From contig OZ020489.1 of assembly GCA_963971405.1 (NCBI GenBank), positions 41,742,510-41,806,509 on the forward strand: a DNA stretch of 64,000 bases, read 5' to 3'. This document shows positions 6,586-26,768 of this stretch, piece after piece. Positions within the stretch are counted from its first letter, which is position 1. Every line of letters starts with the position of its first letter. The position numbers and the translations under genes are program-made. Source of the DNA: Psococerastis gibbosa (lineage: Eukaryota > Arthropoda > Insecta > Psocodea > Psocidae). The notes under the pieces were generated by a model, which was not told the DNA's origin, searched no databases, and saw only the letters and a program-made list of their open reading frames with translations.

Positions 6586-6624
6586 CCCTGAGCGCTTTCG
6601 GCAAGAACTGCCATCTACAGAGGG
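6586..6624 (-). ncRNA. Hammerhead-like motif with CUGUAGA core (copy 1)
   Basis: Read on the minus strand: CCCU, then CUGUAGA, a GGCA/UGCC stem II with a 5-nt loop, GAA, the palindrome AGCGCU, C, then AGGG, which closes stem I with CCCU. All hammerhead parts are present except that the invariant A6 is U (CUGUAGA for CUGANGA). It is the inverted partner of 6762-6800. Confidence 0.5.
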
Positions 6625-6761
6625 AAACCCACTAGCACAGTTACACCTTATTTGCGATTTGAGACTTGCTCAACTCGAGGAGAAAAAGGCAATTTGCATC
6701 TTCTCACTCGAGTTGAGCAAGTCTCAAATCGCAGATAAGGTGTAACTGTGCTAGTGGGTTT

Positions 6762-6800
6762 CCCTCTGTAGATGGCAGTTCTTGCCGAAAGCGCTCAGGG
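6762..6800 (+). ncRNA. Hammerhead-like motif with CUGUAGA core (copy 2)
   Basis: The same 39-nt layout on the plus strand: 4-bp stem I (CCCU/AGGG), CUGUAGA, 4-bp stem II, GAA, AGCGCU, C. The sequence is identical to the inverted copy in the other arm, so the element could form one long hairpin as well as two separate ribozyme-like folds. Confidence 0.5.
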
Positions 6801-6987
6801 TTTTATACTAACACAAGTGGGTTTCTTAGACAAAGTTAATTTCTTAACGATTATTTGGGTTTTACTAATTCGGGTTGTTATAACAAGTTTTTCTAAAACT
6901 CTAAGTTTTTGTTATTTTTTGTTTATTAAAATGAAATACGACGAAGTCACGAGTAATCTCATTATTTATGTTAAAATACATGAATTT

Positions 6988-7279
6988 GCAAATATTTTGT
7001 AAACAAGTGATTTTTTTACTAAATTTTAAAATTTCTCGTTTTTGTCTCTGTAATATTATTACTCTAGAAAATCATGATAAAGTCCATTATAAAGATTTTA
7101 CAGAACAGAGCAGGTGAATAGTTTTTTCGAATTTTACATAAGATCATTTTCATATCATTGCGGCTCTGTAACAAGGATTTCATTAATTTCGCCCAAAAAT
7201 GCCGGGCCAGATATTTGGAAATCTCTGTCTTAATGATTAATGATATTAAAACTTAGTAGATAGTCGGTTAGTTATAACC
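6988..7279. other. Spacer, no gene recognised
   Basis: AT-rich sequence with no repeat partner that I could find and no credible ORF. Confidence 0.4.
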
Positions 7280-7285
7280 TAGAGC

Positions 7286-7365
7286 CAAGGCCGTAGCCTG
7301 GATTTTTTTTTTTTTTGGGGGGGGGGGTTTGCACCCCATGAACCCCCTTGGCTACGGCCATGCCT
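7286..7365. repeat. Short palindrome GGCCGTAGCC ... GGCTACGGCC
   Basis: AAGGCCGTAGCCTGGATTTT with a poly-T/poly-G tract is followed by CCCTTGGCTACGGCC. Longer members of the family, with the same termini facing each other, are at 41260-41575 and 63630-63950. A small internally deleted copy is the likely explanation. Confidence 0.6.
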
Positions 7366-8489
7366 AGAGCGGCGGAATAAGGGGGGGGGGGATCACAGCC
7401 CAGCCGATTTGGACGTTAGTTAAAAAAATCTCGGAGTTCCCCCTACAAGTGGGGGGATTTCACGCCCCCTCCACCCCCGGAATTGGTCGATAAATAATAA
7501 TTAATATCTTTCCTTGGATATAGACCCCCCCCCCCTCCAAGTTGGAACTTTTCCACCGCTCATGGTTATAACATATTCTGTCCGGTACTCGGTTTGGTCC
7601 GGTCTTCCTTACAAACTTTTTCTGGTCCTCGGTTTATTAGTAGCAGTAGTATTCGCCGGGGCGAAAACGACTCAGACTCGGTTTGATCCAACCGAAAATC
7701 CTGACCGAACCTGAGCGAATCTATCGCTAGATGTGATAGCTAAATTGTAATCGAGAAGGTAGAGCACGTCAATCGTTAATTTTTTTTTTAAATTAATAAA
7801 TAGGGGCGGGACTCTTTCAAGTATGTGCGTGTCGGTGTGTGTCTGTTGTGTTTATTAAATGTGTTGTATAGTTAGATAATATAACCACTGTCAATTATCA
7901 TTGTGAACGCTTGTGAATTAGGCGGCGGAGTGGTGCTGAATTTAATGAATTATTCTTAAGTAATCCATGCCTTTTGAGAGATGAATAGTTTTTTCAATAG
8001 GACTAGAGCCCAACGCTGGAGGCGGAATGCATCCCCCCCCCCCATAGGCCTGGATCCGCTTCTGATGGTGAAGTTATCAAAAATGGTCATGAAGAAAAGA
8101 TATGAAGCTGGTCTTCCCTGTAGCGGTTTTAACAAGTGTTTACATTTACAGGATAATAGATATACATCGATTAATAACTAGTCAGTTCCAATTAATTTTT
8201 TTCATGCTCAATTTCGGTCTCAGCTAATAATTAAAAGCAGCAGAATAGCAACATGTCATAATTTCTATTTCGGATATGCCTCAGAGGGCAGTCCACACGG
8301 CAAGTGGATGTGAAACCCCAGTCATATGTTGTAATAAAAGAGCAGGCTGTGGTTGTAACACGAAAAATACAAGACGAGTTACAACAAAATCGAACAATAA
8401 TCCATCCATGCTGTTAGCTTGATAATATGCAATATATGCAGCAGAAGAGCCATAATAAAATAGGAAAAGACATAGTTTGGAGTACTTAC
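7366..8489. other. No gene recognised; possible intron of a minus-strand gene
   Basis: Poly-G and poly-C tracts (7381-7391, 7528-7537, 8033-8044) interrupt AT-rich sequence. The short ORFs show no family resemblance. If the exon at 8490-8621 is real, this region is its downstream intron or flank on the minus strand. Confidence 0.4.
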
Positions 8490-8621
8490 ATTGACATAGC
8501 CCTGTGACACAGGGGGCCTGGCAGGTCGTACTGGTGCGAGCTGGCGGTAGTAGGGTGTGTTAAACACCGCAGCAGGAGCTTGGACCAAACCCGGGGCCTG
8601 CATCACTGCCTGCTGCATTAC
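8490..8621 (-). CDS. Candidate internal exon, Ala/Pro/Gln-rich protein of unknown family
   Basis: A 132-nt open stretch on the minus strand is bounded by a good acceptor (CTTTGGCAG, just right of 8621) and a strong donor (GTAAGTACT, just left of 8490). It is in phase 0 at both ends and encodes 44 residues: VMQQAVMQAPGLVQAPAAVF, then NTPYYRQLAPVRPARPP, then VSQGYVN. It is more GC-rich than its flanks. The low-complexity A/P/Q/V composition with aromatic residues resembles disordered tails of RNA-binding or transcription-associated proteins, but I recognise no family. No partner exons were found, so it is either one exon of a long-intron gene reaching outside the visible pieces or a chance open frame. 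Confidence 0.5.
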
Positions 8622-10967
8622 CTGCCAAAGAATCAATCTGTCAAAAATCCGCAGTTTACAAAAATTTTAAGTCAACATTTCATGTAAAGTCCTGCTGCAT
8701 TCCATCAGTCTTGTGCCAGCACCGTGCATTCCGTATCATGTCCTCCAAGACAAAACAATTGAGATATTGGCAATGACATTTCGGAATATAAATTATCAGA
8801 TGATCGTCTAAAATTCAAGTGAACATCCACACCCTGAACCACCATTTTGAAATTGGGAAAAACATAGAAATTGCAAATGAATATGACTTACAACTATTTC
8901 ATACCGCCTTGTCGCGATTCAATCGATACAGAAGGCACTGTTTACTCACTCGAATACCTAAACTCTCAATATTTCATAGAAAAACATCAAACAGCTAGGA
9001 TATGAAAAAGTACGAAAAAAAAGTCAAGTGGTTTGCAGAACACGGATTTTGACACTCAGCTGTGACCGCCCCTCCCTACCAAACCCGCAGGCGCACACAC
9101 GTCCCCTTTCCACTTTTGACAGTATATCCGCCCAAAAATAGTCTAACCAAGATTTCTTTTCCTTATAACACCGCTTGACACTTTTATTTAATTTAACAGT
9201 AAATTAAAATAACTTTTCTCCTCACAAAGTGACAAATGGAAATGACAAATCTTTGACGTGGGACAAGATCCATCATTTTCAAGCCACTTTCAAAGATTTT
9301 TTAAATTCATTATCCAAAGTAAGCATTAATAGCCCACTAATTAATTTATAAAAATAGTTTTCAATCTATTTTAAATCAATAAATCACTCTAATTCAAATT
9401 TTCAAACACGGAAAAGTCGTTTTATTTACAAGTAACGTGGTAGCAGTAAAATTGGCGGCCATTTTGCTTCCTGTGGCACTGTTTGTTTACTTTTAAAACT
9501 AAAAGCTAAATTTCTATTAAATTGTTCATTGTTGGTTAATTTTTTAAACAACAGTACATTAGTTATATATCATATTTATAAAGGTTTGTATCACGTATTT
9601 TTAGTCTTCGATCACTTATTTAACATCCTGCCTTGGGGAAGCTTAATGTAATTAGCAAAATTAATCCGTAGATTCGACTAGTTACGGTATTAGCCTTTGC
9701 ATTGCCTTCAACTGTTAAATTTTCTGGTTTCTTGTAAAAAATTATGGCCCTATGATTTTTTGGGATTATGAGATTATGAGGTAAAATTGACTAGCGCAAG
9801 AATTTCATCTAAAGGACAGGAAATGCCCAAATATCTGTTATAGCCTTATCCTACGTAAACTAGTATATTTATAATGACCCCTACGCATACGGCTGGCAGT
9901 CTACTAATAAGGTAATCAATAATGCATATTTTTGGAAAATTCTATAATAGGCTGCTATACTTGTGTTTACAAAGTATTCGATCCTGAAAATTTTAAATCA
10001 TTAATCAGCTTAACAATAGTCAATAAGGTAGATGTGTTTGAACCCTTGAAATTTCAGTCCTTAACGATTTATTCAACTTGTTAATCTATGCTAAATCACA
10101 ATATGTGATGTGATACATCACTATGACACATCACAATCTATTCTATTAAGCTAACTACAGCTACACAAAGCAGAAGGATAACGGGTAGTACCTAATGTGA
10201 GTAATAAAGGCTCAACTAAAGGAATACCTAGCAAATAACATAAGCAACTGACAAACCCAATTCGTAAAGCTATGAGGCCAAAATCCCTTTTTAGTTTACC
10301 ATTTTACCGAATAATGGTTTAGTTGTAAAAAGGTAACAACCCACTGTACTAAGGTGTACAGGGACGTCTGTTAGAAAGAAATGACAAGCCTAGTAGCTTA
10401 CACTTATTGCGACCTTGTCACACACACTTTGACCAGTAGGGGGCGGGTTGGGTTGGGTTAGTATCTGGATGACCTTTTCGTTCTCCTGGTAGCTTTTATC
10501 ACATCATACGGTCAAACCCCAAGATACCTAGAAGATTTTTAATCTTACACACCTTGTTTCAAGCCTTCTATATCGCATGTATACTGTAATTTCACCATAT
10601 AAGGTTAGCTTTGACTATCCTCTGATAAATCATTGCCCAATAGAAATCAATCAATCAATCAATCTGTGTATGATGTAATTGTCATTCGAACGGGAGTCGA
10701 ACTCAGTCAGTGTCAACTTGACCAAATGGGGATATTTCCAACATCTCGTCCGTTTCTGGAACCCAATGGGACATCTACTCCAAAGCCCAAGGACCCCAGG
10801 GGACTGTATAGAAGATCTTTGAAGAGAAAACATCTCAACATTAGACTTAGCCCACTGCTGAACCCAAAAACTTTGATGTCTTAACGTTCAAGCCCTCAAT
10901 AAAATTACGCTATTTACCACTCGCCGGATCCCACCATCGCTTGAAAAGTATCGATGAGGAATACAAA
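8622..10967. other. AT-rich unique-looking region, no gene recognised
   Basis: About 2.3 kb with no credible coding frame and few obvious repeats. It holds an (AATC)n microsatellite near 10645-10665. If the exon at 8490-8621 is real, upstream introns and the promoter of that minus-strand gene could lie here, but nothing in the sequence shows it. Confidence 0.45.
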
Positions 10968-11442
10968 GGCGCATATTCCACCTACGTCAATAGTAAATAG
11001 TAAATGTGGTATTGACGGACATTTCCATTTTTCATTGATACACTACATTCCACTTGTTTTTTCAACTATTGATCACTTTTCTTCTATTGACACGTATGCG
11101 CCAAATTTTTGAAATTTGTTTGCATTTGTTTTTTACAATTGGTTTGTATTTGTTTTCTTCGTACACTTATTATTTTTAATAAAACCTAATAATAGTAGGA
11201 GATCCGAAGTAAGATCGACCTTAACCGATCTGTTTAATGGTTGAAAATTGTTTTATAAACATTAAAATATAAAATGTTTGTATTTAACATATCCCATGAC
11301 GCCATTTTAGTTTGTTATTGCTTGCAACGCGTGATTTTACTCTATGATCATTGATCAATTTTAACAATGGCATAGAGTAAAATTGCAATGTCCGTCAATA
11401 CCACATTGACTATTGACTATTGAAGTAGGTGGAATATGCGCC
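10968..11442. mobile_element. Palindromic MITE, family A, long form (copy 2)
   Basis: GGCGCATATTCCACCTACGT at the left and its inverse ending GCGCC at 11442 bound about 475 bp. The inner arms carry CATAGAGTAAAAT and CCAAATTTTTGAAATTTG, which also occur in the long form at 16837-17285 and in family D at 27060-28174. The right end abuts the possible intron of the minus-strand frame at 11483. Confidence 0.8.
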
Positions 11443-11482
11443 TAAATGGAATCGTCATTTCTATATGTACGGTGGTACTTAC

Positions 11483-12920
11483 TTTGCTTTCACTTTTTTC
11501 ACGCTTTATCTCCGACGGGGAGTCGTTGGTACAGTATTGCAGCTGCCAAGGCCCTCTGCCTGGGGTGAGCGTCTTTTTACGAGAATTTGAGTTGTTCCAA
11601 ATCTGCCTGACGTTTCTCGGCATCGTCATTTTCCGTCTCTCCGGTTTCCTGGAACCACAATCTCCTCAACCCTTTTCAGTAGATCTGTTTCCCCTCACCC
11701 TTGGGCATGCCCGTGTCATAGCAGGCGTTTTCAACTCTGGCGCTATCGTGTAGTACACAACTTGAAGCAACCCTAAGCACTACTTGAACACGTTCGTGAA
11801 CGACTCCTAATTTATTTAAATAAAGACATTCACCCACTACTACAGTATAAACATATGGAAAGAACAACCAACCTGTTGTGTAGAGGCACATTCAGGTTCT
11901 TCATGCCATAGAGATTCAAATAAGTACGGCCCCATTAGAATAGTCGGGCGATGCATTGCAGCAGGAGAAATCAGCTCAGGGAAGCCAACCTCTCCTCGAA
12001 CCACTAGCTATGTATTTGCTCAGAGCGCATATTACTAGCCTCACAAGTATAAATTAATGGATAGAAGAGCCCACCTTACCGAGGCTTTTCAGGCGATGAT
12101 GGACCCCACTCCAAGTGCTATATTTTCCGTTCATGTTTTGCGCACATGATCCAATTGACAGGTGAATTTGTGTTAATTGTAGAGAAAATGAACGCAAGAA
12201 GGCTTGAGCTTGAAGTGTGGCTGGCCTACCATTGGCTGCTCAAAGACTACAGTCGTAAGTAGAGTTCTCTATTAGAGAGAACCGACATTTGATCAATATT
12301 TTCCCTCGAAGCCATGAATTTTGAATTTGAATTGAATGATGAAGCGATAATATCTTGTTGAATGCCGTGAAAACCTTTGTAATTAAATCCCCACACGACG
12401 TTCCCAGCCTTTCCTTCTTCTTCTTCCCTACAGTGTCGATTTCAGCTTGAGGGACGCCTCTGACCCACTTCTTAAACTCCACCCCTCGACGACTGGCTGC
12501 ATGCGAAGCTCCGGCGTAGACTTGCCTCTTTTCAGGGCTACCTGTTTTTTTACCCAAAGTTGTTTTTGGTTTGACAATCGGTTTTCTACCGTGTGGCCCC
12601 GCCTCCTCCACCTGCGTCATACATTTGGAAAACCATTGCAGCTCCTAATTTTCCAACCTCTTCTCCACGGATTCGACGTACATTTGTTCACCGATGCGGT
12701 TGTTTCCTCGAACTCCGATCTTGCTTTCCCCGCTTTGAGTCTTAGGTATATTTTCATCTGAGTTACTCTTTATTTTGCTCATTTCGCTTATTGTCCCAAC
12801 ATTTTCAAGAGAATAAAAACGTGGCTTGGTGGGAAGATATTTTCGACGTGTCGTTTCTCTCCAACGTTGAACTGCAGTGTTTGATGTACAACACTTGTGC
12901 TTACAGATGCGCACCGGCAC
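11483..12920 (-). pseudogene. Lys/Arg-rich reading frame with one in-frame stop, unknown family
   Basis: On the minus strand one frame runs from 12920 to 12240, interrupted by a single TAG near 12645. The upstream part has KTQSGESKIGVRGNNRIGEQ. The downstream part has GRKPIVKPKTTLGKKTGSPE and RGVEFKKWVRGVPQAE. Further downstream a possible exon (about 11640 to 11483, ending at the donor GTAAGTACC) reads NSRKKTLTPGRGPWQLQYC in an open frame. The strongly basic composition would suit a nuclear or spindle-associated protein, but I recognise no family. The stop could be a mutation, a missed intron, or evidence that the frame is not coding at all. Confidence 0.3.
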
Positions 12921-13753
12921 AATGTAAATTGTTTACTCACTTGCATTTATCACGATAGCTGCTGGACTCGCCACACACACAGGTAAATACTAGGATGCTT
13001 TAATTTATTTTTGCTTGTCAAGCTGTTTCGTATGTTAGGCTAATGCATTTTTGTAACCTGTTCTACCTTTTGTTGAGTCTGTTTGACCGGAGACTACACG
13101 AATTTGATGAATCAGTAGAATCCGGGATGACAGGCCGTGGTCGTTCTGAAAGTGTACTCCATGTAACTCCGGCCGTGAAAGTGCATGTAAATATACACCA
13201 ATATGAATAGAAGAGAATGCAAGTAAAAAATATAATATTTTTATTAATTAACTACTTAGACTCGTATCTGTACTTGGTTAGTCAAGCTTCCGCCTGTCGC
13301 ATTGCGTCAATGGAAAGCTCGTCTCAGCTTGTCCATTATCGCTTGTTGCCGGTGTAGATTGACATCGAGAACGTATACCAGTTTGCCAATGGGCAAAAAT
13401 TAATACAGAAGCAGTATTAATATTTTCCGAAATCCATTGAGAGAGATAGGGCGAGAAACGAAGATACTCGAGTGGAGATGCCGGTATATCACCGAAAATT
13501 AAGGGTACGAAGGTTACCATCGTGGGGCGAGAAGATGGACACCTGCTACAACGTATGAGTGACTATTCGGTGGAGGGCACCCGACTACTAGGGCGATTAA
13601 GGACCTTGGTCGTTTGTCGCCAAAAAATGCACATGACTGGAGCACCGGGAAATTGATGATCCGTTCCGCCGACCCTTGGGGCTAAAGTAAAGTAAAGTAA
13701 GTTTGTAGGCTACTAGTCTGTACCATGGGTTGGTGCCTTTTAATTTTACGTTA
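12921..13753. other. Repeat-derived spacer with possible LINE 3' end
   Basis: 13258-13410 repeats the sequence at 3220-3330. 13540-13700 ends in a short frame (WSTGKLMIRSADPWG, stop) followed by an (AAAGT)n-like tail at about 13684-13700. A comparable tail ends the Jockey-like fragment at 44.9 kb, so a 5'-truncated non-LTR element is plausible. A PLE-end-like sequence (GTAGAATCCGGGATGACAGG) lies near 13115-13160. Confidence 0.4.
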
Positions 13754-14015
13754 GGCCCGGTACACACGGATGATTCTCGGAGTCGCGATTTGCCGACGTA
13801 TTTTCCATTGAAGCCATAGGGCTAGCAGAACTGAAGATTTCTTATCGATTTCTCGTGAAGCCGACCGCACGGAAGTCCGAGACATGCCAGATAGTTGATA
13901 TCGTCTGAAGTAGACTCTGTGGGTTCCACCAACCATTCACCAAGCCTACAATGGAAAAGACGTCGGCCAATCGCAACTGCGAGAATCGTCCGAATGTTTA
14001 TTTTTTCTGCTTCGT
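13754..14015. mobile_element. TIR element starting GGCCCGGTACACACGG (copy 1)
   Basis: The left end GGCCCGGTACACACGGATGA continues with TTCTCGGAGTCGCGATTTG. The right end mirrors it as CAATCGCAACTGCGAGAATC then GTCCG, but the last dozen bases are missing. The second copy at 20943-21541 has both ends. No transposase is present, so this is a non-autonomous DNA transposon. Confidence 0.7.
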
Positions 14016-14735
14016 TGCGTTGCATAGCTTCCATCTTGGTTTCGATGATATTGATGGATATTGTTTTGATTTAATTTTATGCAGTACTATAAGTTAAATG
14101 CTAATCTTCTGAACAGGATTGAGGCATTTGGACTCAAACAATTTTCGGCAGTTACCTTTTTTACTTTGTATCTCTTAAAACTTGATAAAGAGCATACTTG
14201 GTAGATGTTAAATTCTGGTTTTAAAAATAAGTCAGTCTTTATTGGTTAATCGGATAAGCTGTAGGTCTATTTTTCATTGTTTTATTTATTTTCTTCCTGT
14301 TTTTTTTTTATACGTTTGTAATGGAAGAGCATAGCAGGAAATAACCGCACTTCTATTCTCATGTTTTCTTTGATATTTTGTTATGTTTTTGTATCTGTAC
14401 AACTGGTACCGTACTGTAAATTGCACATGTACAAATATAATTATATATTATTAGTTTTTTTTTTTTTTTTAATCATAACCCAACGCCCTTTGGGGCTTAC
14501 GCGTTGTTTGTTTATGTGTAGTGTTTTGAATTTAATATATTACGCTCTAATTTAATCGATACTACATTTATGTATGTGTGTTCTATTTTGACCCATACCC
14601 CCCCCCCCCCCCCAAGTGATCTGTATCCGTCCCTGATGTGCTGATGTGACCGTTGACTCGTACCCGAACTAGACTAAGTCACCTTTGCGCCTGTTAAATT
14701 GAGACAATGGTACGCTCCACTCAGCTTGACTATTT
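14016..14735. other. AT-rich spacer with a GGATCC-type poly-C repeat end
   Basis: Mostly poly-T-rich unique sequence. Around 14565-14640, TTTTGACCCATACC, a long C tract and GTATCCGTCCCTGATG match the poly-C/poly-G repeat family seen complete at 34441-34620 and in the 42-kb and 63-kb arms. Confidence 0.5.
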
Positions 14736-14935
14736 TGTAGTAACTTGTAAATCCGGGCTGATGAACCGTGGTCGAAATGAAGTGAACTTCTATACGTTTC
14801 GTCAACATCTGGGGTCGACATCTGCAGTGGCGCTGCGTAGACTTCGAGGTTGTACCTCGGTGGCTCCGTAGCGACTCTCGACCACGGCCCATCAGCCCGA
14901 ATTCTACTGGTTCCTCAACACCAATAATATCCGTA
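14736..14935. mobile_element. Inverted pair of Penelope-like 3' ends with a decayed hammerhead
   Basis: ATCCGGGCTGATGAACCGTGG at the left is mirrored by CCACGGCCCATCAGCCC at the right, so two element ends face each other. Minus-strand sequence at about 14795-14850 has the hammerhead layout (GAUGUCGACC...GUUGACGAAACGU), but the core reads CUGCAGA. The same terminal sequence joins the GIY-YIG coding region in the copies at 52905-55140. Confidence 0.65.
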
Positions 14936-15510: not shown

Positions 15511-15639
15511 GGAAGGTCCCTATGAAAATACCCGAAATATCTATCTATCTTAATGAGCTAGAAGCAGAAGGTCACACTTCAAAATGTAGAGAAACATTTC
15601 TGCTTTCTACTAATTCCTCACAGATGGTTATCAATAATT

Positions 15640-16642: not shown

Positions 16643-19350
16643 TAATGGACGGGTTTAAAGCAAGGGACATTGGGATGCGTGTGCAGAAGAAGATTCTAAG
16701 TCGAATGGCAACGAAAAATGTCGCTAGGGTGTTCATTGACGAGAGGTCTGCCAATATTCTAGACAATCTGTACAAGCTAGTCAAAGACTACGTAAGTCAA
16801 ATGTGCATCCTTTATAACCTATTCATGGTCAGTTAGGCTCTTATTCCACCAACGTCAATAGTGATAGTAAATGTAGTAAAGACGGAAATTTGAATTTTAC
16901 TCTATGCCATAGTTAAAATTGATCAATGATCATAGAGTAAAATCACGCGTTGCAAACAATAACAAACTAAAATGGCGTCATGGGATATGTTAAGTACAAA
17001 TATTTTATATTTTATTGTTTATAAAACAATTTTCATCCATTTAACAGATCGGTGAAGGTCGATCTTACTTCGGATCTCCTACTATTATTAGGTTTTATTA
17101 AAAATAGTAAGTGTACGAAGAAAACAATCACAAACAAAATTTCAAAAATTTGGCGCATGCTTGTCATGAGAAGAAAAGTGGTCAATAGTTGAAAAAACAA
17201 GTGGAATGGCGTGCATCAATGAAAAATTCAAATTTCCGTCAATACCAAATTTACTATCACTATTGACGTTGTTGGAATAAGCGCCTAATCAACGTCAGCA
17301 TGTTAGACCTTGTTACGCCCTAGGACTAATACAAGAGCACATATTCCTCTTGGCCTAGGCTCATGGCTGAGGACAGACATCAAACCTCTCTTTTAGAAAT
17401 ATTATATCGTCCAGCACGTATGTCCTTAGCCATAAAGTATAAAACACGAAACTTCGGTTCACCGTTTGAGCTGATTACACCGTGCAGGTTAGAGTAGCCT
17501 CCTAAGGAGCTTATTCCATCTACGTCAATAGTGCATAGTAAATGTGGTATTGACGTGGTAGCAGACATTGTTAGACTGTCTTTAATGTCTGCTACCACGT
17601 CAATACCACATTTACTATGCACTATTTACGTAGGTGGAATATGCGCCTAACAATGAAGTAAGTACGTTATCATGTTGCCCCCCAAGTAGCTCAGTGTGAA
17701 ATCCTTACTTAACCCGGTTCACCTCCTTTTTTGTAACCTAAAGTTTTCACATTGTGTCTTTCTGTTTACACCTTCCGTTAGCTGGCAGCTACCGTAGTAG
17801 CCTCTGGATTAAATCCTGTTTTTGCATTGCTACAGTACGCGTCTCATTTGCTTCGACACGAGAACTTCGTAAGCTGCATCATTGAGAGAGCCATAGAAAG
17901 CGTCAACCGGCCTGGGGCGCCCGAGAAAAGAGTATCTACGGCAGAGGATGTAAGGGCCAATACATATGTGGAGCTGAAGAGGGCGTGCCAGGATGAAGAG
18001 GAGAGGATGCATCGATGCCACGTGGCTGTAACTTGAAGAAGAAGTACGCGTCTCATTCGTCCCCGTACAGCGTAGCCACTCAACGAGCGTCTCACCTGGC
18101 AGACCTGCTTGTGTTAAAACATTATGTCAGGTTTTTTCTTGCACACAGTCGTGGAGACCAGTATTCTCTTTGGCAAGTTGCTGCAAGTTAGAGATACCTA
18201 TAAGAAGCACTGTATTTCCACGAGGTACGGCCGATGGCCGGAGCCGGCTTTAATGGTTGATGTATGTTTTTGCAGACTGGCAGTAAAAAGGAAGCGGAGA
18301 AATTGGTGAAAAATCTAATCAAGGTGGTGGTGAAGATGGCCGTTCTGTACCGACATGATCAACTGACCAAAGAAGATTTTATCCTGGCCGACAAGCTCAA
18401 GAACAGGTTCAATGCGGCTGCACTTGCAATCATCAGCTTCTTTGAGGTAGGGTACCTACACATAAACAATATATTAAACACTGGGTTGCCAGACGAGAGG
18501 AAATTCTGTTGTCACGCATGCGTCTGGGCCTTTCAAAGCTCATACAGCGTCATCCTATGGCATACGACCCGCCACCGAGTTGCCATAACATTGAAATGTC
18601 CTGCTGACCTGCTCGGTCAACGCATGCGTCTGGGCCTCTTAAGGCTCACAACGGTCATCTTATGGCATATGACCCGCCACCGAGTTGCCATAACTTTGAC
18701 ATCTCCTGCTGACCTGCCCGGTCTACGCTGGCCCCAGAGCCCTCTGCCGCTGCCGTACACACTGCAACACCTGTTTAGAATTGACGAGTGTCCTGTGTCT
18801 CGTCGTCTGGTACATCAAGTCTACCCCCCTCTTTAGAACACTCTAAGGAGAGTCTGGGGTTGACAACAACAGAAGCCCAGAATGGCAAAGAGCCTATTTA
18901 TTTTACAACTTGGATGCATTGATTACATGAGTTGACTTGTTTGTTGTAAAAGTAAAGTGAATCGTCTCAATTACTACTTAATCGATACTCCTGTCGTCCC
19001 CTTCATAGTAATCCCTCCCATATGTATAAATTAATACACTTCCCTGAATCAAAATCCTGGATACGTACCTGGCTCAAACGGACCTTATAACTAATTCATT
19101 TAATCAGGTGGACTTCACATACGATAAGCTGTACCTGACGAAGCATTTTAATGAATGCCAAGTAGCACTAGGCGCCATCATCGAGCGACATCTCACAGAG
19201 AAATCGTTGCACCGTGTCCAGCACGTGTTCCAAATCATAGGCGATCCCGACTTCCTGGACGCCATCTTTCGGAGTGGCTCACCGCACCGGCCCGTCCTCC
19301 AAGCCATAGTCAAGGATATGAGCGATGCTATGGACGCTGGTGAATTGTAA
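16643..19350 (+). CDS. TNFAIP8: TNFAIP8-family protein (TIPE), 186 aa, three coding exons
   Basis: Coding exons are 16645-16791, 18276-18446 and 19108-19350, all joined in phase 0 at canonical sites (donors GTAAGTC and GTAGGGT; acceptors TTTTTGCAG and TTTAATCAG). The 186-residue product begins MDGFKARDIGMRVQKKILSR and ends KDMSDAMDAGEL. Blocks diagnostic of the family are AQKK-type RVQKKILSRMATKN (residues 12-25), KEAEKLVKNLIKVVVKMAVL (about 53-72), and ERHLTEKSLHRVQHVF (about 132-147). The family folds as one all-helical domain with a lipid-binding cavity; members act in phosphoinositide signalling, cell death and immune homeostasis. The short N-terminus resembles the insect protein more than vertebrate TNFAIP8. 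Family and exon calls are strong. Which vertebrate paralogue it corresponds to cannot be said, as arthropods typically have one copy. Confidence 0.93.
16837..17285. mobile_element. Palindromic MITE, family A, long form (copy 3), in TNFAIP8 intron 1
   Basis: TTA precedes GGCTCTTATTCCACCAACGT, and the mirror end GCGCC at 17285 is followed by TAA. The interior (CATAGAGTAAAATCACGCG, AAATGGCGTCATGGGATATG) matches the inverse of 10968-11442. It starts only about 45 bp after the exon 1 donor. Confidence 0.8.
17315..17460. repeat. Repeat shared, inverted, with SPTLC1 intron 2
   Basis: GTTACGCCCTAGGACTAATA, TTGGCCTAGGCTCATG and GCACGTATGTCCTTAGCCAT have inverse counterparts at about 32830-32950. The family is present in introns of both host genes and is otherwise unidentified. 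Confidence 0.55.
17506..17646. mobile_element. Palindromic MITE, family A (copy 4), in TNFAIP8 intron 1
   Basis: TAA, then GGAGCTTATTCCATCTACGT; the mirror half ends GCGCC before TAA at 17647. It is nearly identical in its arms to copies 1 and 5 and contains the shared GTGGTAGCAGACATT core. Confidence 0.85.
17849..18042 (+). mobile_element. 5'-truncated non-LTR 3' end with 15-bp target duplication, in TNFAIP8 intron 1
   Basis: AGTACGCGTCTCATT occurs exactly at 17834-17848 and 18043-18057, framing 194 bp. The insert reads as a coding C-terminus (RPGAPEKRVSTAEDVRANTY, VELKRACQDEEERMHRC, stop) and ends in GAAGAAGAAG-type sequence. A truncated coding end, short-repeat tail and exact target duplication mark target-primed reverse transcription, probably from an RTE-like element. 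Confidence 0.8.
18511..18722. repeat. Two-copy tandem repeat, period 106 bp, in TNFAIP8 intron 2
   Basis: CGCATGCGTCTGGGCCT, GTCATC(C/T)TATGGCATA and CCGCCACCGAGTTGCCATAA occur in the same order at 18515 and 18621 with few differences. The GC content is higher than in the flanks. The long frame through both units (18264-18836) is a chance extension of exon 2 and is not coding beyond 18446. Confidence 0.75.
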
Positions 19351-20119
19351 ATTGGTCATTTTTTACTGTAGCCTTAATAGTTTTTTTTTTTGTTTTTTTT
19401 TTTTAAGTTACTCACTAGAGTGTGTGTTGATGGTGAGAAATAATCCCGTTGGTAGAGAATTTGACTATAAAAGGGAGACGACCTCTCCAGTTCAGTGCCG
19501 GGTTTGGCTATGGGACTAGGAGGGCCATGACCCCCCACAAAATCGCAATAGATTAAAAAAACAAAACCAAAAAACTAAAGCAAATATATAAACTTGTCGA
19601 AATATTTAGCGGGAAACTGGAACGTGCCGTGGCATTAATGATTAATCGCCTTACTCTATTGTATTCTATTCTATTTTGCATCCTGTGGCTCTATTTTATA
19701 AATGATAGTGGAATATTCGTGTAATGGTGCAAGACTTTTCTGCCCGAGAAAGGGCCGAAAAGGCCAAACCAGGTTCCAGTTTATGCGCAGCATTCGTCTG
19801 TATATCCACATTAGAAATATCTGGCCTGTATTCACCCATTCCTAATGGATATCATACGAAAATCGGAAATACGGATACCGGAGTACCAGCATCCCAAATG
19901 GAGTAATGGTCAAGAGACCCTCTACCAGTCCTCTCGCCTAGGCCCTCATAGAATTGCCGTGCCACGGCGTTTAGTAAGGTGTGATGCACATGCTGAATAC
20001 TGTATATAGAATAGAAAACAGTGTATTTCTCAACCAAAATGAACATGTGAACATGAAATTACGACCTGTGCCCCCTCAAGCCGAAGCGTGGGTGGGTGTC
20101 ACAATATCGTACTTACTTA
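19351..20119. other. 3' flank of the TNFAIP8-family gene, no gene recognised
   Basis: Poly-T tracts near 19380-19405 follow the stop codon. I see no clear AATAAA close to the gene end and no coding frame before the MITE at 20120. Confidence 0.4.
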
Positions 20120-20261
20120 GGCGCATATTCCACCTACGTCAATAGTCAATAGTAAATGTGGTATTGACGTGGTAGCAGACATTAAAGACAGTCTAAAAAT
20201 GTCTGCTACCACGTCAATACCACATTTACTATTGACTATTGACGTAGGTGGAATAGGCGCC
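20120..20261. mobile_element. Palindromic MITE, family A (copy 5)
   Basis: TTA (20117-20119) precedes GGCGCATATTCCACCTACGT. The mirror half ends GGCGCC and is followed by TTA (20262-20264), a clean 3-bp target duplication. The element is almost a perfect 142-bp palindrome, so it probably inserted recently. Confidence 0.9.
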
Positions 20262-20541
20262 TTAACAACCGTAGATATATTAGAAGGTAGTACCTGTATT
20301 TACATACTGGTAGTGTTTTCATATTTTCTCTGGAAAGTTAGAACAAAACTATTGAGGCTACAGTACAGATGGACACTTTAGAGTAAGAAAAAAGGGACTG
20401 TTGACTCTACAGATACCTACTCGTACAACAGCCTAAATTTACTCAACCTTCTATGATTGAGAAGGTTTAAAGGGAGACAGTATTTAGATACCCTTGGTTT
20501 TACACTAAATTCAACTTTTTACAGCTTATTCAAGTTACGTA

Positions 20542-20925
20542 GGTGCACATTCCATTGACCGGCTAGGGCTATTTCCAAAAACGGTGACGTGGTAGCAGAC
20601 ATTCAAGACTTAGGTGGCGTTTCCACCGACCTCGCATTGCAGAATTGACGGAAATGTTTATTTTCCTCTATGCCATAGTTAAAATTTATGAATGATCATA
20701 CAGTAAAATCACAAACAAACAAACTAAAATTAAAAAATGGCTTCATGGGATATGTTAATTACAAACATTTTAATAGATTTCTATAAAAAGAAAAACAAAC
20801 AATTCCGTCAATGTCATTTGCAATCTGCAATGCGAGGTCGGTGGAAACGCTACCTAAGTCTTGAATGTCTGCTACCACGTCACCGTTTTTGGAAATAGCC
20901 CTAGCCGGTCAATGGAATGGACGCC
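20542..20925. mobile_element. MITE, family B (copy 1)
   Basis: The left end reads CATTCCATTGACCGGCTAGG with GGTGC in place of GGCGC. The right end is CTAGCCGGTCAATGGAATGG followed by ACGCC and TTA. Inner segments GTGACGTGGTAGCAGACATT and its inverse flank a GGCGTTTCCACCGACCTCGC arm. The core is shared with family A. Confidence 0.85.
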
Positions 20926-20942
20926 TTACAATGTCCCCTTCA

Positions 20943-21541
20943 GGCCCGGTACACACGAACGATTCTTACAGTCGCGGTATGCCGACGTCTTTTCTATTGT
21001 AGCCATAGGGCTAGCAGAAGATTTCTTGACTATTTTGGAGGCTGCTGTGAAGCCGAGTGCGCGAAAGTGCACGGTTTTCCTCCTAGACACGTTAGATCCC
21101 AGAAATTATCGGAAGCAGACTCTGTGGCTAAGGCGGCTATTCCACCGACAAATTTGCTTCATTTGAGATTTTTTTTTTGTTGTTTTGTTTTAAGCAGACT
21201 ATTATGTAGATACTTAACTTATCTATTATAAATTAAGTTATAATATGATAGGGACTTATTAATGATGTCTGCTACCACGTCGGCACATCGATTAGTGAAG
21301 CAAATTTGTCGGTGGAATAGCCGCCGAAGCAGTATAATCCGGGATGATAGGCAGTGGCCATTTTGAAACCGTACTTCCATCATCCCGGATTCTACTGCTT
21401 CGTCTCGTAACTCCGGTCGTGAAAGCCTTTGTAATTATAGACTCTCTGGGTCTGTACCAACCATTCATCAAGGCCTATTCCTACCATGAAAAATATGTCG
21501 AGAAATCACGACTGCGAGAATCGTCCGTGGGGACCGGGCCG
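20943..21541. mobile_element. TIR element GGCCCGGTACACACG (copy 2), carrying nested insertions
   Basis: The left TIR GGCCCGGTACACACGAACGA faces a right end GAATCGTCCGTGGGGACCGGGCC. The interior matches 13754-14015 (GCCATAGGGCTAGCAGAA, GACTCTCTGGGTCTGTACCA). Nested inside are family C MITE copy 2 (21132-21325) and a PLE-end palindrome (21339-21425, ATCCGGGATGATAGGCAGTG and its inverse). Confidence 0.75.
21132..21325. mobile_element. MITE, family C (copy 2), nested
   Basis: TAA precedes GGCGGCTATTCCACCGACAA, and the mirror half ends GGTGGAATAGCCGCC. The interior keeps GTTTTAAGCAGACTATTATG and TAAATTAAGTTATAATATG, but the second half is shortened and carries a GTCTGCTACCACGTCGGC block like that of families A and B. 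Confidence 0.8.
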
Positions 21542-22488
21542 TAGATTAAAATATGCCGTTTGCGCGGAAAAAAATCTTATTTGGCGAAGCAGTGAGTGTC
21601 ATAAAATATTCCCCTGGGAACACCTTATTGCCTAGGCTAACAGAAACAGAACAAATACAATGTCTTAAAGTTCAGGAACGTTCGTGATAATACTATAATA
21701 TAAACCAATAAAACCAATCAAAATACTTTCTCCTTGTCTAATTTATAATAAATCTTTAAAAAATCCTGTTATCGTCTGTCCTTTGACAACAGTTAAATTT
21801 ATTTTAATTTAGCCAAGAAGAAATCATTTCGATTGGTGTTAGTTTGATCACTAATCTTCCTGAACCTAGTTTCATTTTATTTGTTCAGTCTATGCAATAA
21901 GGGGCTCCTAGGGGAATTTGTTTATGAATACCGTATGAGATACTTCGCGCCCAACGGGCGTACCAATTTTATAATTTGCATTTAGTATGATTCCACATTC
22001 TTATGATAACGACCGAGGCATTTCTAGTAGGAAATGACTCAAAATGACTCATTTTATTATCTGATTAGATCTGATCTACTCATGACTCATATTGCATTTA
22101 TGTTAAAAAGATAATCCATTTTACACTACCTACTTTATGTATTTATTATTTTTATAAAGTATTAACTTATGTTTTAATTGCAGTATTGAAGCATTGTTTT
22201 TTAACTAATTTGTGTTTAGTTAACGCAATTTGTTTTTACTATGAGTAAATACAGCAACATGCTAAAAATTCGTGTTGCCGGAATTGAGTTGAATATTATT
22301 TTCAACTAATGAACCTCTTTTGTATAGAAATGTAATGAGAAGTGACATAAAATTGCAATGTTTTGATTGGTTGAGCCCATGATTTGATTTGTTGAACGAA
22401 TGCATTTCATATACATATGTACGAAAGAGCTCCACTGGTTTGACTCACATTTGTTTTTAGTTTATACTAGTCTTTATATTGGTAAACC
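21542..22488. other. AT-rich spacer, no gene recognised
   Basis: No coding frame, RNA gene or repeat partner was recognised in this segment. Confidence 0.4.
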
Positions 22489-23465
22489 ACGCTAAGTTAA
22501 ACCATGCATCATTCCAGACAAGTCATGGTAAGTCGACTGAGGCAAACTGTGCAAGTGTTAATAAATAATAATAATAATAATAACAAATAAATAAGTCGTA
22601 TAATTACACAATCAACAGGTAAAATCCTCTACGATATGGCAAACGACATATATATATGTAAGATAGCTGTTGTTCGAGTATAGGCGTATTTTGTTACACG
22701 AATTTGGATTACTGGATTTGGTGCATTTTGTTACCAAAGGGGGCGGAGCGTATTAAATGTTCGATTCTTAACCCGGATTAGAGAACAGGATTAGTATTAT
22801 GTATTCAATAATATTTAATCTTGGTCGGGAGGTAGATCAGATATTCATTTTTTTTTTTCTGATAAGTTTTTTTAGTTTTGCCACGATTTTGGCTTACAAA
22901 AATTTGTTTACGCTAGGCTGACATCTTGGATTTGTAATGACTATCGTGTTAATGGTTAATATTATGCTGTTGGTGTGACTTTTTATAGGGTTTATTTTTT
23001 AAAATTTAACTGCGAAGGCTTTCGCGGCCAGAGTCACATGAAGAATCAGTAGAAAATGGGCTGATGGTCCATAGTCGATATGAAAGTCAACTTCCATAAT
23101 CAACTTTCAAATCAACCACGGCCCATCAGCCCAATTTCTACTGGTTCTTTATTTTTTTTAGTTAGTTGTTTTAAGTTATTTTTTATAATGGGTGATGTTG
23201 ATATCATTTATTTTCTTCAAATTTTGGATTGGCGCCTTTAATTTGAATTCATGTCTACTGCTTAGAATATAATATTTGAATATCACAATACGCTCATTTT
23301 GTTGCATTTTTTTGCTTCTTTTCCTCCTGTTCCCTGATTGGTCCAACTTCTAATACGGATTTGTGTTCAAATGTAAAATATTCGTGTAACAAAATACGCC
23401 TTAACACTTGCACAGTCAACTTACTGTGATTTTCCTGCAATGATTTATGGTTAAACTTAGTGTAG
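22489..23465. mobile_element. About 1-kb inverted-repeat element
   Basis: The left arm (CACGCTAAGTTAAACCATGC, GACTGAGGCAAACTGTGCAA, GGCGTATTTTGTTACACGAA) is mirrored at 23372-23465. The left arm has about 110 extra bases, including a TAA microsatellite at 22560-22585. A palindromic PLE-end pair (23040-23145, GTAGAAAATGGGCTGATGGT and its inverse) is nested inside. A related single arm is at 43755-43810. Confidence 0.6.
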
Positions 23466-24736
23466 ATTAGCAATAACACTGTTTGTGGTGCTTTTCACTA
23501 AATTGTAAATTGTTTTAAACGAGTAGGCTATAGCTTAGTTAAGAGTATGCTCAATTTATGGAGATCTTTCGTATAAATAAATCCAGCATATCTGGTAATA
23601 AATGTTGCCACGTTGATTGTTTAAATATGGTTTCAAGGCTACTTGCCCTACCAAAAAAAGCTACGTTAGGCTTTCTTGTATTTCAGCTCATCTGACTGGC
23701 GCTTTCATTTGTGACTTGACCAAGGTGTTCAGCTCAATTAGGCGAAATAAACGCTGTATTGGCATCACCGCGATGCCGTAAAGGTTTGAGTGATAGGCCA
23801 AATTGTTGGAAACCTTTGAATCGAATCCTTCACTTAACTTTTAACTTCCACTAAAGTGATATTTTTCTATAAATCATGGAGAATATATGTATTAAATTAT
23901 ATGCAGCGAAATAAGGTCCAGTCATAGTAAAAATATTAAAAGAATTAATTAGATGCTTAGAGCTTAGCTTTCACATGCAAACGGCGGCCATTTTGAATAA
24001 TATGGATATCGGTTTGTCGTCAGCGAACCTAGTGACCAAAACTGTCCCTACAGAACCTCATTAATCGGTTTCGGTGTCATGATGGTGTCATCTTGTACTT
24101 TTGCGAATCTCTAAGCACCGTGCGATCGGAGACGTGTCGTAACTCAGCACAATAATTATTAATTTCATTGAGGCAACTCAAGAGGTCAATCGCATAGACT
24201 ACATTCAATTTTTTGCATGCAATTAACCTTTTTTTTTACAAAAAAAAAAAGTAGTATAGTAGCTTTGTAGCCGTGCTTGATTTTTTGATTGGCTGATTTA
24301 AAAAAAAATTGATTGGCTAATTAGCAGGTATGCAGATTTTTTATGCGTTAGTTCTCCATTATTTCTTGTTTGTGATTTTTATATCATGACAACGTTAATA
24401 ATACACTATAATTATCATGTTAACAACGAAGTGCCTTCCAGTAAAAATGCGGGGAGCACACATTCATTTGTATTCTGTTTTACAATCGGCTCTATGTTAT
24501 TGTAGCCCTTTATATATATATATTATATGTACCTAATATGAAAATAATGCGAACATGGGAAGATTCATTTTGTCACTCAAAGCTCAACGAAAAACTTTTA
24601 TTGTAATGCTTGTTAAAATATATTATCAAGGCTAGACGATTCACTCAAAATTAGTTAGGCTACATTTTAATTTTAATTTTTTTTAATTTACTCTGAAAGC
24701 TATCAAAAATGTATTCCGTTGGTGTTACGTTCGTTT
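23466..24736. other. No gene recognised; contains a dispersed repeat
   Basis: 24080-24230 resembles 4745-4870 in reverse (CGGAGACGTGTCGTAACTCA and following). The rest is AT-rich with poly-A/T runs and no credible frame. Confidence 0.4.
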
Positions 24737-25091
24737 CTTAGACCATATAATACTCTAGACACGGCATTCTAGATGCACTGCATGAGAAAGTTGGGGCAAC
24801 AAAATTATGTTTATCTTTTGCCAGCGGATGACGTCACAGCCCAGGTTACCTAGCAGCAGAGGCTGATCGTTAAAAGTTTCTAATTGATTATTTGAATATT
24901 AAATAAGTTTTACCAAAGTTAAAAAAATTATTCTCTCACTCCAATTAATATTTAATTAATTAATTAACTAAACAAAACTTGAAAATAATATGTTCGCACC
25001 TCTGCAGCTGCTTTTGCCAGTGTGCACTCCATTTTATGTTGATCCCACGGATATTCTAACATGGCGTGTCTAGAGTATTATATGGTCTAAG
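24737..25091. mobile_element. 355-bp MITE with about 27-bp TIRs (CTTAGACCATATAATACTC)
   Basis: CTTAGACCATATAATACTCT then AGACACG at the left end is repeated as the exact inverse CGTGTCTAGAGTATTATATGG then TCTAAG at the right. The interior is AT-rich without a frame. It directly abuts the composite element that follows. Confidence 0.75.
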
Positions 25092-25366
25092 ATTCGTAAG
25101 ATTCCACTTGTTTTTTTTCATTTGTGCATTAAAAAATAATAAGAATTTAGCTTTAAGGAGACTATTATGTAGATACTTAACTTATCTATTATAAATTAAG
25201 TTATAACATAAATAATGAGATTACTCGTGACTTCGTGGTATTTCATTTTAATAAACAAAAACTTAGAGTTTAAGAAAAACTTGTTATAACAACCCGAATT
25301 AGTAAAACCCAAATAATCGTTAAGAAATTAACTTTGTCTAAGAAACCCACTTGTGTTAGTATAAAA

Positions 25367-25405
25367 CCCTGAGCGCTTTCGGCAAGAACTGCCATCTACA
25401 GAGGG
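25367..25405 (-). ncRNA. Hammerhead-like motif with CUGUAGA core (copy 3)
   Basis: Inverted copy in the left arm. It shows the same stem I (CCCU/AGGG), stem II (GGCA/UGCC), GAA, AGCGCU and C as the other three copies, and the same U at the position of conserved A6. Confidence 0.5.
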
Positions 25406-25636
25406 AAACCCACTAGCACAGTTACACCTTATCTGCGATTTGAGACTTGCTCAACTCGAGGAGAAGATGCAAATGTGACTAGAGAGAGGAAACCTTGGTT
25501 TATATAGGACTGGGGGCGGGGGGAGGAGGGGGTGGGAGGGGTGTGGCTGGTTGCCTATTCCTAACCTACTAGCTAGATCTATTAGAGGGGATGATTGTGT
25601 GAATGTTAAATAGTTAAATGTATATCTTTCTGGACA

Positions 25637-26635
25637 AGGTATGTGGATGATATCTTCTGCATTTGGACAGGAAGTAACAGACAACTAGACAATTTCTTAA
25701 GTTTTATCAACACAATTCACCCAAAAATCCAATTTACCATGGAAGTAGAAGAAAACAACTCCCTGAACTTCTTAGACCTCACCATCACCAAAAATAATAG
25801 TACCCTAGACTTCAAGATATTTCGTAAAGAAACCCATAGCGATAATATAATCCCTGTTGATTCTTCTCACCCATTCCAGCACAAACACGCAGCATTCCAT
25901 AGTATGATTTTTCGACTCCTTAACATCCCTATGAATGAAACCAACTATAATAATGAATTAAATACAATAAAACAAATTGCCCAAAATAACAATTTCAATC
26001 TCAACCTAATAGACAGAATCCTACGACATCACAAAATCAAACACAACCTCAAACTAATTTACCCCCCAGAGAGCTTAAACCCGGTAACCAATAAATCATA
26101 TTTCAGGATACAATACATAGAAAAAATCACAGAAAAAATAAGTAACCTCATTTCTTATACAACAGACAAAACACCAGCCCCGTACAACCGCAACAATTTG
26201 GCCAATAAACTCATGAACTGCACAACCAAACCAGAAAAGGAAAAAGGCAATGGAGTTTATCGTCTAAATTGTAACGATTGTAACGCAATTTGCATAGGCC
26301 AAACAGGCAGAAGCTTTAAAACTAGGGTCAGAGAACATATAACAGGTATACGAGACACCAACACCAACAGCACATTCGCGAAACACCTTAACTCGGAAAA
26401 TCACACATTCGATCCTAACAATCGGACAGCCCTATACAAAATAAAGAAAAGTTACACTTTACATTTTTTTGAAAATGTTGAAATCAAAAGAGCTTTACAC
26501 AATAGGGAAAAATTAACAAACGACATAACATTCACACAATCATCCCCTCTAATAGATCTAGCTAGTAGGTTAGGAATAGGTAACCAGCCACGCCCCCTCC
26601 CACCCCCTCCTCCCTCCGCCCCCAGTCCTATATAA
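25637..26635 (+). CDS. Penelope-like reverse transcriptase C-terminus plus GIY-YIG endonuclease (5'-truncated)
   Basis: An uninterrupted frame starts within the RT palm: RYVDDIFCIW holds the catalytic YVDD (about 25640-25651). It continues through NFLSFINTIHPKIQFTMEVE and LNFLDLTITKNNSTLDFKIF, typical of PLE RT after the palm. The C-terminal third has the GIY-YIG endonuclease: GVYRLNCNDCNAICIGQTGR (GVY for GIY, CIG for YIG, the Arg of the motif, and the CxxC that PLE endonucleases carry just before it), then TRVREHITG. The stop is at 26633-26635. PLE proteins copy RNA at cleaved targets in the nucleus. There is no real start codon: the frame begins where the inverted arm joins the body, so no normal protein is expected. 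The lack of frameshifts points to recent insertion. Confidence 0.9.
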   Translation, partial: RYVDDIFCIWTGSNRQLDNFLSFINTIHPKIQFTMEVEENNSLNFLDLTITKNNSTLDFKIFRKETHSDNIIPVDSSHPFQHKHAAFHSMIFRLLNIPMNETNYNNELNTIKQIAQNNNFNLNLIDRILRHHKIKHNLKLIYPPESLNPVTNKSYFRIQYIEKITEKISNLISYTTDKTPAPYNRNNLANKLMNCTTKPEKEKGNGVYRLNCNDCNAICIGQTGRSFKTRVREHITGIRDTNTNSTFAKHLNSENHTFDPNNRTALYKIKKSYTLHFFENVEIKRALHNREKLTNDITFTQSSPLIDLASRLGIGNQPRPLPPPPPSAPSPI

Positions 26636-26729
26636 ACCAAGGTTTCCTCTCTCTAGTCACATTTGCATCTTCTCCTCGAGTTGAGCAAGTTTCAAATCGC
26701 AGATGAGGTGTAACTGTGCTAGTGGGTTT

Positions 26730-26768
26730 CCCTCTGTAGATGGCAGTTCTTGCCGAAAGCGCTCAGGG
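26730..26768 (+). ncRNA. Hammerhead-like motif with CUGUAGA core (copy 4)
   Basis: It lies about 95 bp downstream of the PLE stop codon, in the 3' region, and is identical over 39 nt to the motif at 6762-6800. Hammerheads are established components of PLE terminal regions, which supports reading this as a variant hammerhead. The A6 change would normally abolish cleavage. Confidence 0.5.

What the first reader, a model, noticed from the sequence alone, without database searches (positions are those of the whole stretch)
6586..26768. Four copies of a hammerhead-like motif that all carry CUGUAGA in place of CUGANGA
At 6586-6624 (-), 6762-6800 (+), 25367-25405 (-) and 26730-26768 (+) the sequence has a 4-bp stem I (CCCU/AGGG), a 4-bp stem II (GGCA/UGCC) closed by 5 nt, GAA, a palindromic AGCGCU helix III and C at the cleavage position. 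Only the core differs: A6 is U, followed by A. PLE hammerheads are established, but A6 is regarded as essential. Four copies at two loci with every helix intact suggest either that a variant fold is maintained or that a dead ribozyme was copied with the element.
Basis: partly seen in the sequence, partly recalled or inferred. Interest (0 to 1): 0.85.

Follow-up and report, generated by a model that had tools for sequence, protein, structure and literature searches.

The report
Retroelement hammerheads with altered catalytic core

Summary
The four motifs are real. They lie in two head-to-head insertions of one Penelope-like element (PLE1: reverse transcriptase plus GIY-YIG).

The home genome (409 Mb, unnamed) shows an old, family-wide change. 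The motif with free core letters occurs 1,290 times; 1,275 have U at position 6, three have A. A related family has A6 in 98 of the 100 hits listed (of 2,141), a third hammerhead-like family in 99 of 100 (of 103). Older PLE1 copies also carry U6.

Dead or alive? Forty-four PLE1 places begin exactly at the predicted cut, GCUC^AGGG. Fifteen of 15 places found by the same kind of search in the related family begin at its own cut. I favour slow cleavage in cells. Against it: none of 12 full-length copies starts at a cut, published A6-region mutants are weak, and neighbouring positions could not be counted. An in vitro assay would decide.

The parts
6762..6800 (+). hammerhead-like core with U6, copy 1 right arm: TAG 6769-6771, ATG 6772-6774, cleavage base C17 6796, predicted cut 6796/6797
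6748..6755 (+). 5' strand of outer stem I helix (GTGCTAGT), pairs with 6807-6814 (ACTAACAC), 7 of 8 pairs
   Evidence: read by eye
6807..6814 (+). 3' strand of outer stem I helix (ACTAACAC)
6692..6976 (+). PLE1 copy 1, right arm, element -72..+211 (C3 of the core = +1)
   Evidence: 98.9% over 285 nt
6456..6684 (-). PLE1 copy 1, left (head-to-head) arm, element -63..+165
   Evidence: 97.4%
6586..6624 (-). hammerhead-like core with U6, copy 1 left arm
25200..25608 (-). PLE1 copy 2, upstream inverted arm, element -207..+212
   Evidence: 95.7%
25367..25405 (-). hammerhead-like core with U6, copy 2 inverted arm
25499..25506 (-). TATATAAA, promoter-like, element -104
25611..26897 (+). PLE1 copy 2, 5'-truncated main arm: C-terminal ORF, pseudo-LTR, hammerhead, tail
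   Evidence: 97.6-98.2%
25610..26635 (+). 341-aa frame: end of the reverse transcriptase (YVDD) and GIY-YIG endonuclease of PLE1, 96% identical to the best other genome copies
   Evidence: domains scored on the 923-aa copy (the 341-aa fragment itself gave no Pfam match at E<=0.001)
26629..26636 (+). TATATAAA, element -104
26730..26768 (+). hammerhead-like core with U6, copy 2 main arm: TAG 26737-26739, ATG 26740-26742, C17 26764

Best explanation
The motif is the pseudo-LTR hammerhead of a young Penelope-like retroelement family (PLE1) whose lineage carries A6-to-U. Shown: a tandem PLE1 copy has RT and GIY-YIG domains in a 923-aa frame; the frame can open at an AUG made of A9, an extra U and G10.1, directly after an in-frame UAG that the U6 change creates; the tandem units have a hammerhead at each boundary; U6 is present in old and young copies. 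Inferred: transcripts start about 75 nt upstream of the core (TATA box at -104, many arm starts at -75 to -70); part of this RNA is cleaved 3' of C17, 25 nt inside the reading frame, probably slowly and perhaps with help from the element's protein, as published for an Anolis relative; reverse transcription of uncut RNA and of the cut 3' piece then yields copies starting upstream of, or exactly at, the cut. Cutting separates the AUG from the frame, so a slow ribozyme would leave more intact message.
For: Family-wide U6: 1,275 of 1,290. A6 in relatives: 98 of the 100 hits listed of 2,141 in family A; 99 of the 100 listed of 103 in a third hammerhead-like family. Youth: 18 of 118 scored protein matches share one score, 741.8 bits, and 102 of 118 have no stop in the matched stretch (my count); 18 of 45 sampled arms, the reference among them, have no substitution over at least 200 nt. 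Age of U6: 7 of 7 old-subfamily copies not chosen by their core are U6. Footprint: of 58 genome places with a non-C before AGGG..., 44 have no hammerhead upstream and start exactly at +32; 13 are full hammerheads with a changed C17, 1 has a deletion. 25 of the 44 match the young copy over 85 nt, and no two share a junction (last 30 nt). Of 34 opposite arms at loci where only one arm was selected, 15 start at +32..+40 (17 by ungapped comparison). Family A: 15 of 15 places retrieved start exactly at +36, its predicted cut; one pair of them is a duplicate. Background: 12 starts in -69..+20 among 76 sampled arms scale to about 2 per position in 1,290 copies.
Against: The background figure rests on a non-random sample, and the pattern itself demands a start at +32 (or +36 in family A). 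Opposite arms of PLE1 peak at +36 and +38, not at +32. Six of six PLE1 copies with long frames do not start at the cut: four cross it, one has a deletion there, one starts at +136. The same holds for six of six family A copies, starts between about -252 and +375. 21 of 76 sampled arms start at -75..-70, so uncut RNA is a frequent template. In a published mutant survey all single and double changes in the CUGA region other than the C3/G8 pair swap gave low activity (PMC9901934, section 7 read). The natural A6C phage variant cleaved below 0.1 per minute (PMC3088659, section 8 read). In the Anolis element hammerhead mutants did not affect insertion in vitro and no RNA reads ended at the cut (PMC11167929, main text read). 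The lack of change in the 39 nt between old and young subfamilies (0 of 12 differences) has a chance probability of about 0.1.
Confidence: 0.55

Rival explanations
1. Dead passenger: A6-to-U abolished cleavage in the founder, the element does not need its hammerhead, and the motif persists because it holds the start codon and because copies are young.
For: Hammerhead mutants of the Anolis element insert normally in vitro (PMC11167929, main text read). CUGA mutants are weak (PMC9901934). Four of six PLE1 copies with long frames run through the cut. Old-versus-young differences give 0 of 12 in the 39 nt, not significant.
Against: 44 places start exactly at the predicted cut, most of them young, and canonical-core family A shows the same kind of start at its own, differently composed cut site.
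Confidence: 0.28
2. The +32 starts reflect something other than ribozyme cleavage: an initiator-like transcription start (CTCA^GGG) or reverse transcriptase stopping at the folded stem I or the three-way junction.
For: CTCA resembles an initiator (recalled). Opposite arms peak at +36 to +38, where a polymerase would meet stem I. In family A too the start is the first base of stem I's 3' strand, so a structural stop would sit there as well.
Against: Family A's cut (GTT^TGG) has no initiator-like CA, yet 15 of 15 retrieved places start there. A stop before a helix would be expected at +36 in PLE1, not at +32, which lies beyond stem I's 3' strand.
Confidence: 0.16
3. Cleavage in trans: U6 RNA is cut by rare A6 copies of the same family through the palindromic helix III.
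For: Three A6 copies exist, and helix III AGCGCU is self-complementary.
Against: 3 of 1,290, all three with insertions or deletions relative to the young copy. Family A and the third family have other stem I letters.
Confidence: 0.03

Closest known systems
Hammerheads of Penelope-like elements (Cervera and de la Pena 2014; Lunse et al. 2017; content recalled, papers not held; their description in PMC7229834 and PMC6155905 seen as passages)
   Same: type I layout, tiny palindromic helix III expected to work as a dimer, location in pseudo-LTRs
   Different: A6 is U in nearly all copies found; PLE1 keeps an outer stem I helix with an internal loop
Poseidon element PAc of Anolis carolinensis (PMC11167929, main text read)
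   Same: ORF begins at stem II of the hammerhead, cut site 26 bp after the start codon (25 nt here), internal reverse-transcription start with an optional tail, cleavage and extension of both target strands (would explain head-to-head pairs)
   Different: PLE1's core has U6; for PAc no RNA reads at the cut site were found, whereas PLE1 and family A have genomic copies that start there
Natural A6C hammerhead of phage Bcep176 (PMC3088659, section 8 read)
   Same: change at core position 6 in nature, low but detectable cleavage
   Different: one sequence with C6; here U6 in more than a thousand copies of a retroelement
Metazoan retrozymes (PMC7229834, passages read)
   Same: type I hammerheads in dispersed retroelements
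   Different: retrozymes are about 170-400 nt and carry canonical type I hammerheads; PLE1 has a 2,876-bp unit that codes for RT and GIY-YIG

Membership tests
Hammerhead ribozyme, type I | conserved CUGANGA core | tested here: not met
   U at position 6 in 1,275 of 1,290 hits; C3, U4, G5, G8, A9 are present in the motif
Hammerhead ribozyme, type I | three helices around the core, GAA(A), NUH at the cut | tested here: met
   stems I, II, III, GAAA and CUC present; family A and the third family form stem II and helix III with other letters; the third family's stem I is weak
Hammerhead ribozyme, type I | self-cleavage 3' of position 17 | tested here: inconclusive
   only a footprint: 44 places start exactly there, while 6 of 6 long-frame copies do not; no assay
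Hammerhead ribozyme, type I | match to Rfam Hammerhead_1 | tested here: inconclusive
   no match in window (E<=1) or genome (73 of 48,463 candidates scored); canonical-core family A does not match either (E<=10), so the test has no power here
Penelope-like element (Penelope/Poseidon type) | RT and GIY-YIG endonuclease in one ORF | tested here: met
   PF00078 E 2.1e-13 and PF01541 E 4.9e-5 on the 923-aa frame; clade placement itself was not tested by a tree
Penelope-like element (Penelope/Poseidon type) | tandem units that share pseudo-LTRs with hammerheads | tested here: met
   L061: 2,876-bp unit with a hammerhead at each end
Penelope-like element (Penelope/Poseidon type) | internal reverse-transcription start near the 5' end of the ORF with two discrete 3' ends | tested here: met
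   by my reading, 12 opposite arms end at +160..+164 and 16 at +200..+214; that these are RT starts is inferred
Retrozyme | small ORF-less repeats with canonical hammerheads | tested here: not met
   923-aa ORF and non-canonical core

The most novel reading that the evidence does not exclude
A natural, lineage-wide A6-to-U hammerhead that still cleaves in cells, tuned to be slow because its cut would sever the start codon lying in its own core; ribozyme core, stop codon and start codon have evolved together.
Probability: 0.38. Interest if true: 0.78.

Novelty: new variant of a known kind. Interest (0 to 1): 0.62.

Why it matters
A6 is treated as near-essential from mutagenesis. A retroelement that made over a thousand copies without it either shows that the core tolerates U6 in its natural setting (extra U, outer stem I, dimer, protein help) or shows in nature that such elements can dispense with cleavage. 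Both readings are testable with short transcripts, and a family with a canonical core in the same genome is a ready control. Copies that begin exactly at the predicted cut site, in two families, would also be a genomic record of hammerhead-cut templates being inserted, which the Anolis work did not see in RNA reads.

Tried and rejected
Chance origin in the window: rejected. 'Mutated minority of a canonical family': rejected. A6 copies as surviving ancestors: the three A6 copies do not carry the old-subfamily marks and look like back mutations or noise. Rfam as arbiter: no power. Apparent hammerhead near the RT fragment, at 55543 (-): core CUGACGA but a C-G pair at 15.1-16.1, and its copies are near-identical repeats, so I judge it probably chance. 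Relatives of PLE1 in viral contigs: none found by one pattern and one protein scan. Folding energy: no signal; a computed U6/A6 comparison gave the same energy for the forced hammerhead fold. Stem covariation within PLE1: copies too alike. Old-subfamily conservation of the 39 nt: probability about 0.1, not used as proof. Literature on U6: searches. The one paper listed as holding CUGUAGA (PMC4191386) is a synthetic design paper, seen in the listing only; my look inside it failed. The two key papers on PLE hammerheads are not held, so I cannot say that U6 is absent from print.
Full report
Observation. The four 39-nt motifs are at the stated places. A strict structural scan for CTGNNGA cores with stem I, stem II, GAA, helix III and a non-G cut base finds only these four in 64 kb; 20 shuffles of the + strand give none. 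A looser scan lists weaker candidates as well. The heptamer alone is at chance. Three details were missed. The stretch between stems I and II is eight letters, CUGUAGAU. An outer helix (GUGCUAGU with ACUAACAC, 7 of 8 pairs) continues stem I beyond an internal loop (by eye). And the extra U creates an AUG.

Context. The four motifs are two insertions of one element, each made of two head-to-head arms: 6456-6684 (-) with 6692-6976 (+), and 25200-25608 (-) with 25611-26897 (+). The second insertion keeps a 341-aa frame (25610-26635). In the home genome (G000, 409 Mb, 68 contigs, unnamed) this protein has 118 scored matches out of 2,993 first-look candidates. By my count of that table, 18 share the highest score after the window's own, and 102 have no stop in the matched stretch. 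A tandem copy on C1 (L061) has a 2,876-bp unit with a hammerhead at each boundary and a 923-aa frame with reverse transcriptase and GIY-YIG domains. I call the family PLE1. I did not identify the species or build a tree.

Start codon in the core. The 923-aa frame reads CUG UAG AUG GCA GUU CUU GCC GAA AGC GCU CAG: an in-frame stop, then AUG made from A9, the extra U and G10.1, then the rest of the hammerhead as codons. That this AUG is used is inferred. The cut after C17 would fall 25 nt after the A of AUG. In the Anolis element PAc the ORF likewise starts at stem II, with the cut 26 bp after the start codon (PMC11167929, main text read). The extra U is also in family A, whose protein is 32% identical to PLE1's over 545 aligned positions and which reads CUG AAG AUG. 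So the extra U and the A at position 7 are shared between the two families, and within these core letters what sets PLE1 apart is the single change A6 to U.

How general is U6? The pattern CTGNNGANGGCAN5TGCCGAAAGCGCTC occurs 1,290 times. Fifteen have a letter other than T at position 6: nine C, three G, three A. In family A the corresponding pattern occurs 2,141 times; of the 100 listed, 98 have A and 2 have G. A third hammerhead-like family, with one copy in this window at 50804 (+), occurs 103 times; of 100 listed, 99 have A and 1 has G. Its stem I is weak and its protein was not examined. A search for A6 cores with PLE1's stem lengths found 18 places genome-wide, among them the three A6 copies of PLE1.

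How old is U6? Many PLE1 arms are identical to the reference over 280 nt. After two duplicate loci are dropped, 18 of 45 sampled arms, the reference among them, have no substitution over at least 200 nt (with duplicates 19 of 48). An older subfamily differs from the young copy at 12 of 230 scored columns, none of them among the 39 hammerhead columns (chance about 0.1, so not proof). Its ten sampled members have U6 in eight, G in one and C in one; the last two were fetched because they were not U. All seven found by similarity rather than by core are U6. U6 therefore precedes the split of the old and young PLE1 sequences sampled here.

Does it still cut? A cut RNA would begin at the A of AGGG (+32, counting C3 as +1), and a reverse transcript running off it would give a genomic copy starting there. 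I searched for that start with any base but C before it: 58 places. I fetched all 58. Thirteen are whole hammerheads with a changed C17, one carries a deletion, and 44 have no hammerhead upstream: the element starts exactly at +32. Twenty-five of the 44 match the young copy perfectly over 85 nt, and no two share the last 30 nt before the start. Thirty-eight of the 44 have an opposite PLE1 arm next to them. In two loci (L141, L159) both arms were in the selected set; leaving these four rows out, 34 opposite arms were not chosen for their start, and 15 of 34 begin at +32 to +40 (17 of 34 by ungapped comparison), with a peak at +36 to +38. For comparison, 12 of 76 sampled arms start anywhere in the 90 positions from -69 to +20, which scales to about two per position for 1,290 copies; that sample was not random. 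As a comparison with a canonical core I searched family A for starts at its predicted cut (GUU^UGG), with A or G before it: 15 places, and 15 of 15 have no hammerhead upstream and start exactly at +36. Two of the 15 are copies of one insertion, and two further pairs from different loci share their last 30 nt.

Against this. Of six PLE1 copies with long frames, none starts at the cut: four run through it (starts at about -100, -104, -313, -350), one has lost the hammerhead's 5' half, one starts at +136. Of six family A copies with long frames none starts at its cut either (about -252, -88, +2, +76, +297, +375). Of the 76 sampled arms, 21 start at -75 to -70, about 30 nt after a TATATAAA at -104, so uncut RNA is a common template. 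I had no searches left to count starts at +28 to +40 one by one, and each cut-site search by its design returns only starts at that site. In a pairwise mutagenesis of a type III hammerhead, all single and double changes in CUGA except the C3/G8 swap gave low activity (PMC9901934, section 7). The natural A6C hammerhead of phage Bcep176 cleaves at less than 0.1 per minute (PMC3088659, section 8). Low is not zero, and the Anolis hammerhead needs the element's protein in vitro (PMC11167929), so slow or assisted cleavage fits both the biochemistry and the footprint.

Mechanism proposed. RNA starting near -74 (inferred) carries the hammerhead, whose core holds the first AUG after that start in the L061 sequence (read by eye). 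Uncut, it is the message. Cut after C17, it loses the AUG but keeps the region where reverse transcription seems to start: by my reading, 12 opposite arms end at +160 to +164 and 16 at +200 to +214, matching the two start sites and optional tail described for PAc. Because PAc cuts and extends both target strands, two RNAs can be copied at one site and joined head to head, which would explain the paired arms. A slow U6 ribozyme would leave more message intact. Steps from RNA onward are inferred.

Membership. By its layout this is a type I hammerhead of the Penelope-like kind, but the defining A6 is tested and not met, so I file it as a variant that works like a hammerhead with moderate probability, inside an element that meets the tests made here for a Penelope-like element. 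Papers on PLE hammerheads by Cervera and de la Pena and by Lunse and colleagues are not held here, so a prior sighting of U6 cannot be excluded.

Noticed in passing
L062:2883-2908 (family A tandem junction): In family A the upstream ORF's stop codon and the next unit's AUG lie inside the same hammerhead in two frames (the ORF ends ...STEDVDRRC*; the next starts MSTADVDETF), so one short stretch serves as ribozyme, C-terminus and N-terminus.
   Followed up: partly
window 50804-50832 (+) and about 50580-50586 (-): A third hammerhead-like family with canonical CUGAUGA plus the extra U, helix III ACCGGU, 103 copies in the genome; stem I next to the core is weak (2 bp, by eye). A diverged inverted partner lies nearby.
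   Followed up: partly
window 53281-54503 (-) and 55543 (-): Fragment of a family-A-like reverse transcriptase inside a highly conserved repeat (the first 27 genome matches listed are 96-100% identical over 165 aa); a CUGACGA hammerhead look-alike with a C-G pair at 15.1-16.1 lies about 1 kb upstream.
   Followed up: partly
PLE1 arms across G000; window 6692: Preferred arm start at -75 to -70 (21 of 76 sampled arms), about 30 nt after TATATAAA (-104): likely transcription start of the pseudo-LTR promoter.
   Followed up: partly
window 20154-20229 and 17552-17603: Near-perfect hairpins that Rfam scores as miRNA families below the gathering score; by eye they look like inverted-repeat (MITE-like) elements.
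   Followed up: no
window 37288-40199 (-): Overlapping 404- and 665-aa frames that by eye look like a non-LTR (LINE) element with endonuclease and reverse transcriptase.
   Followed up: no
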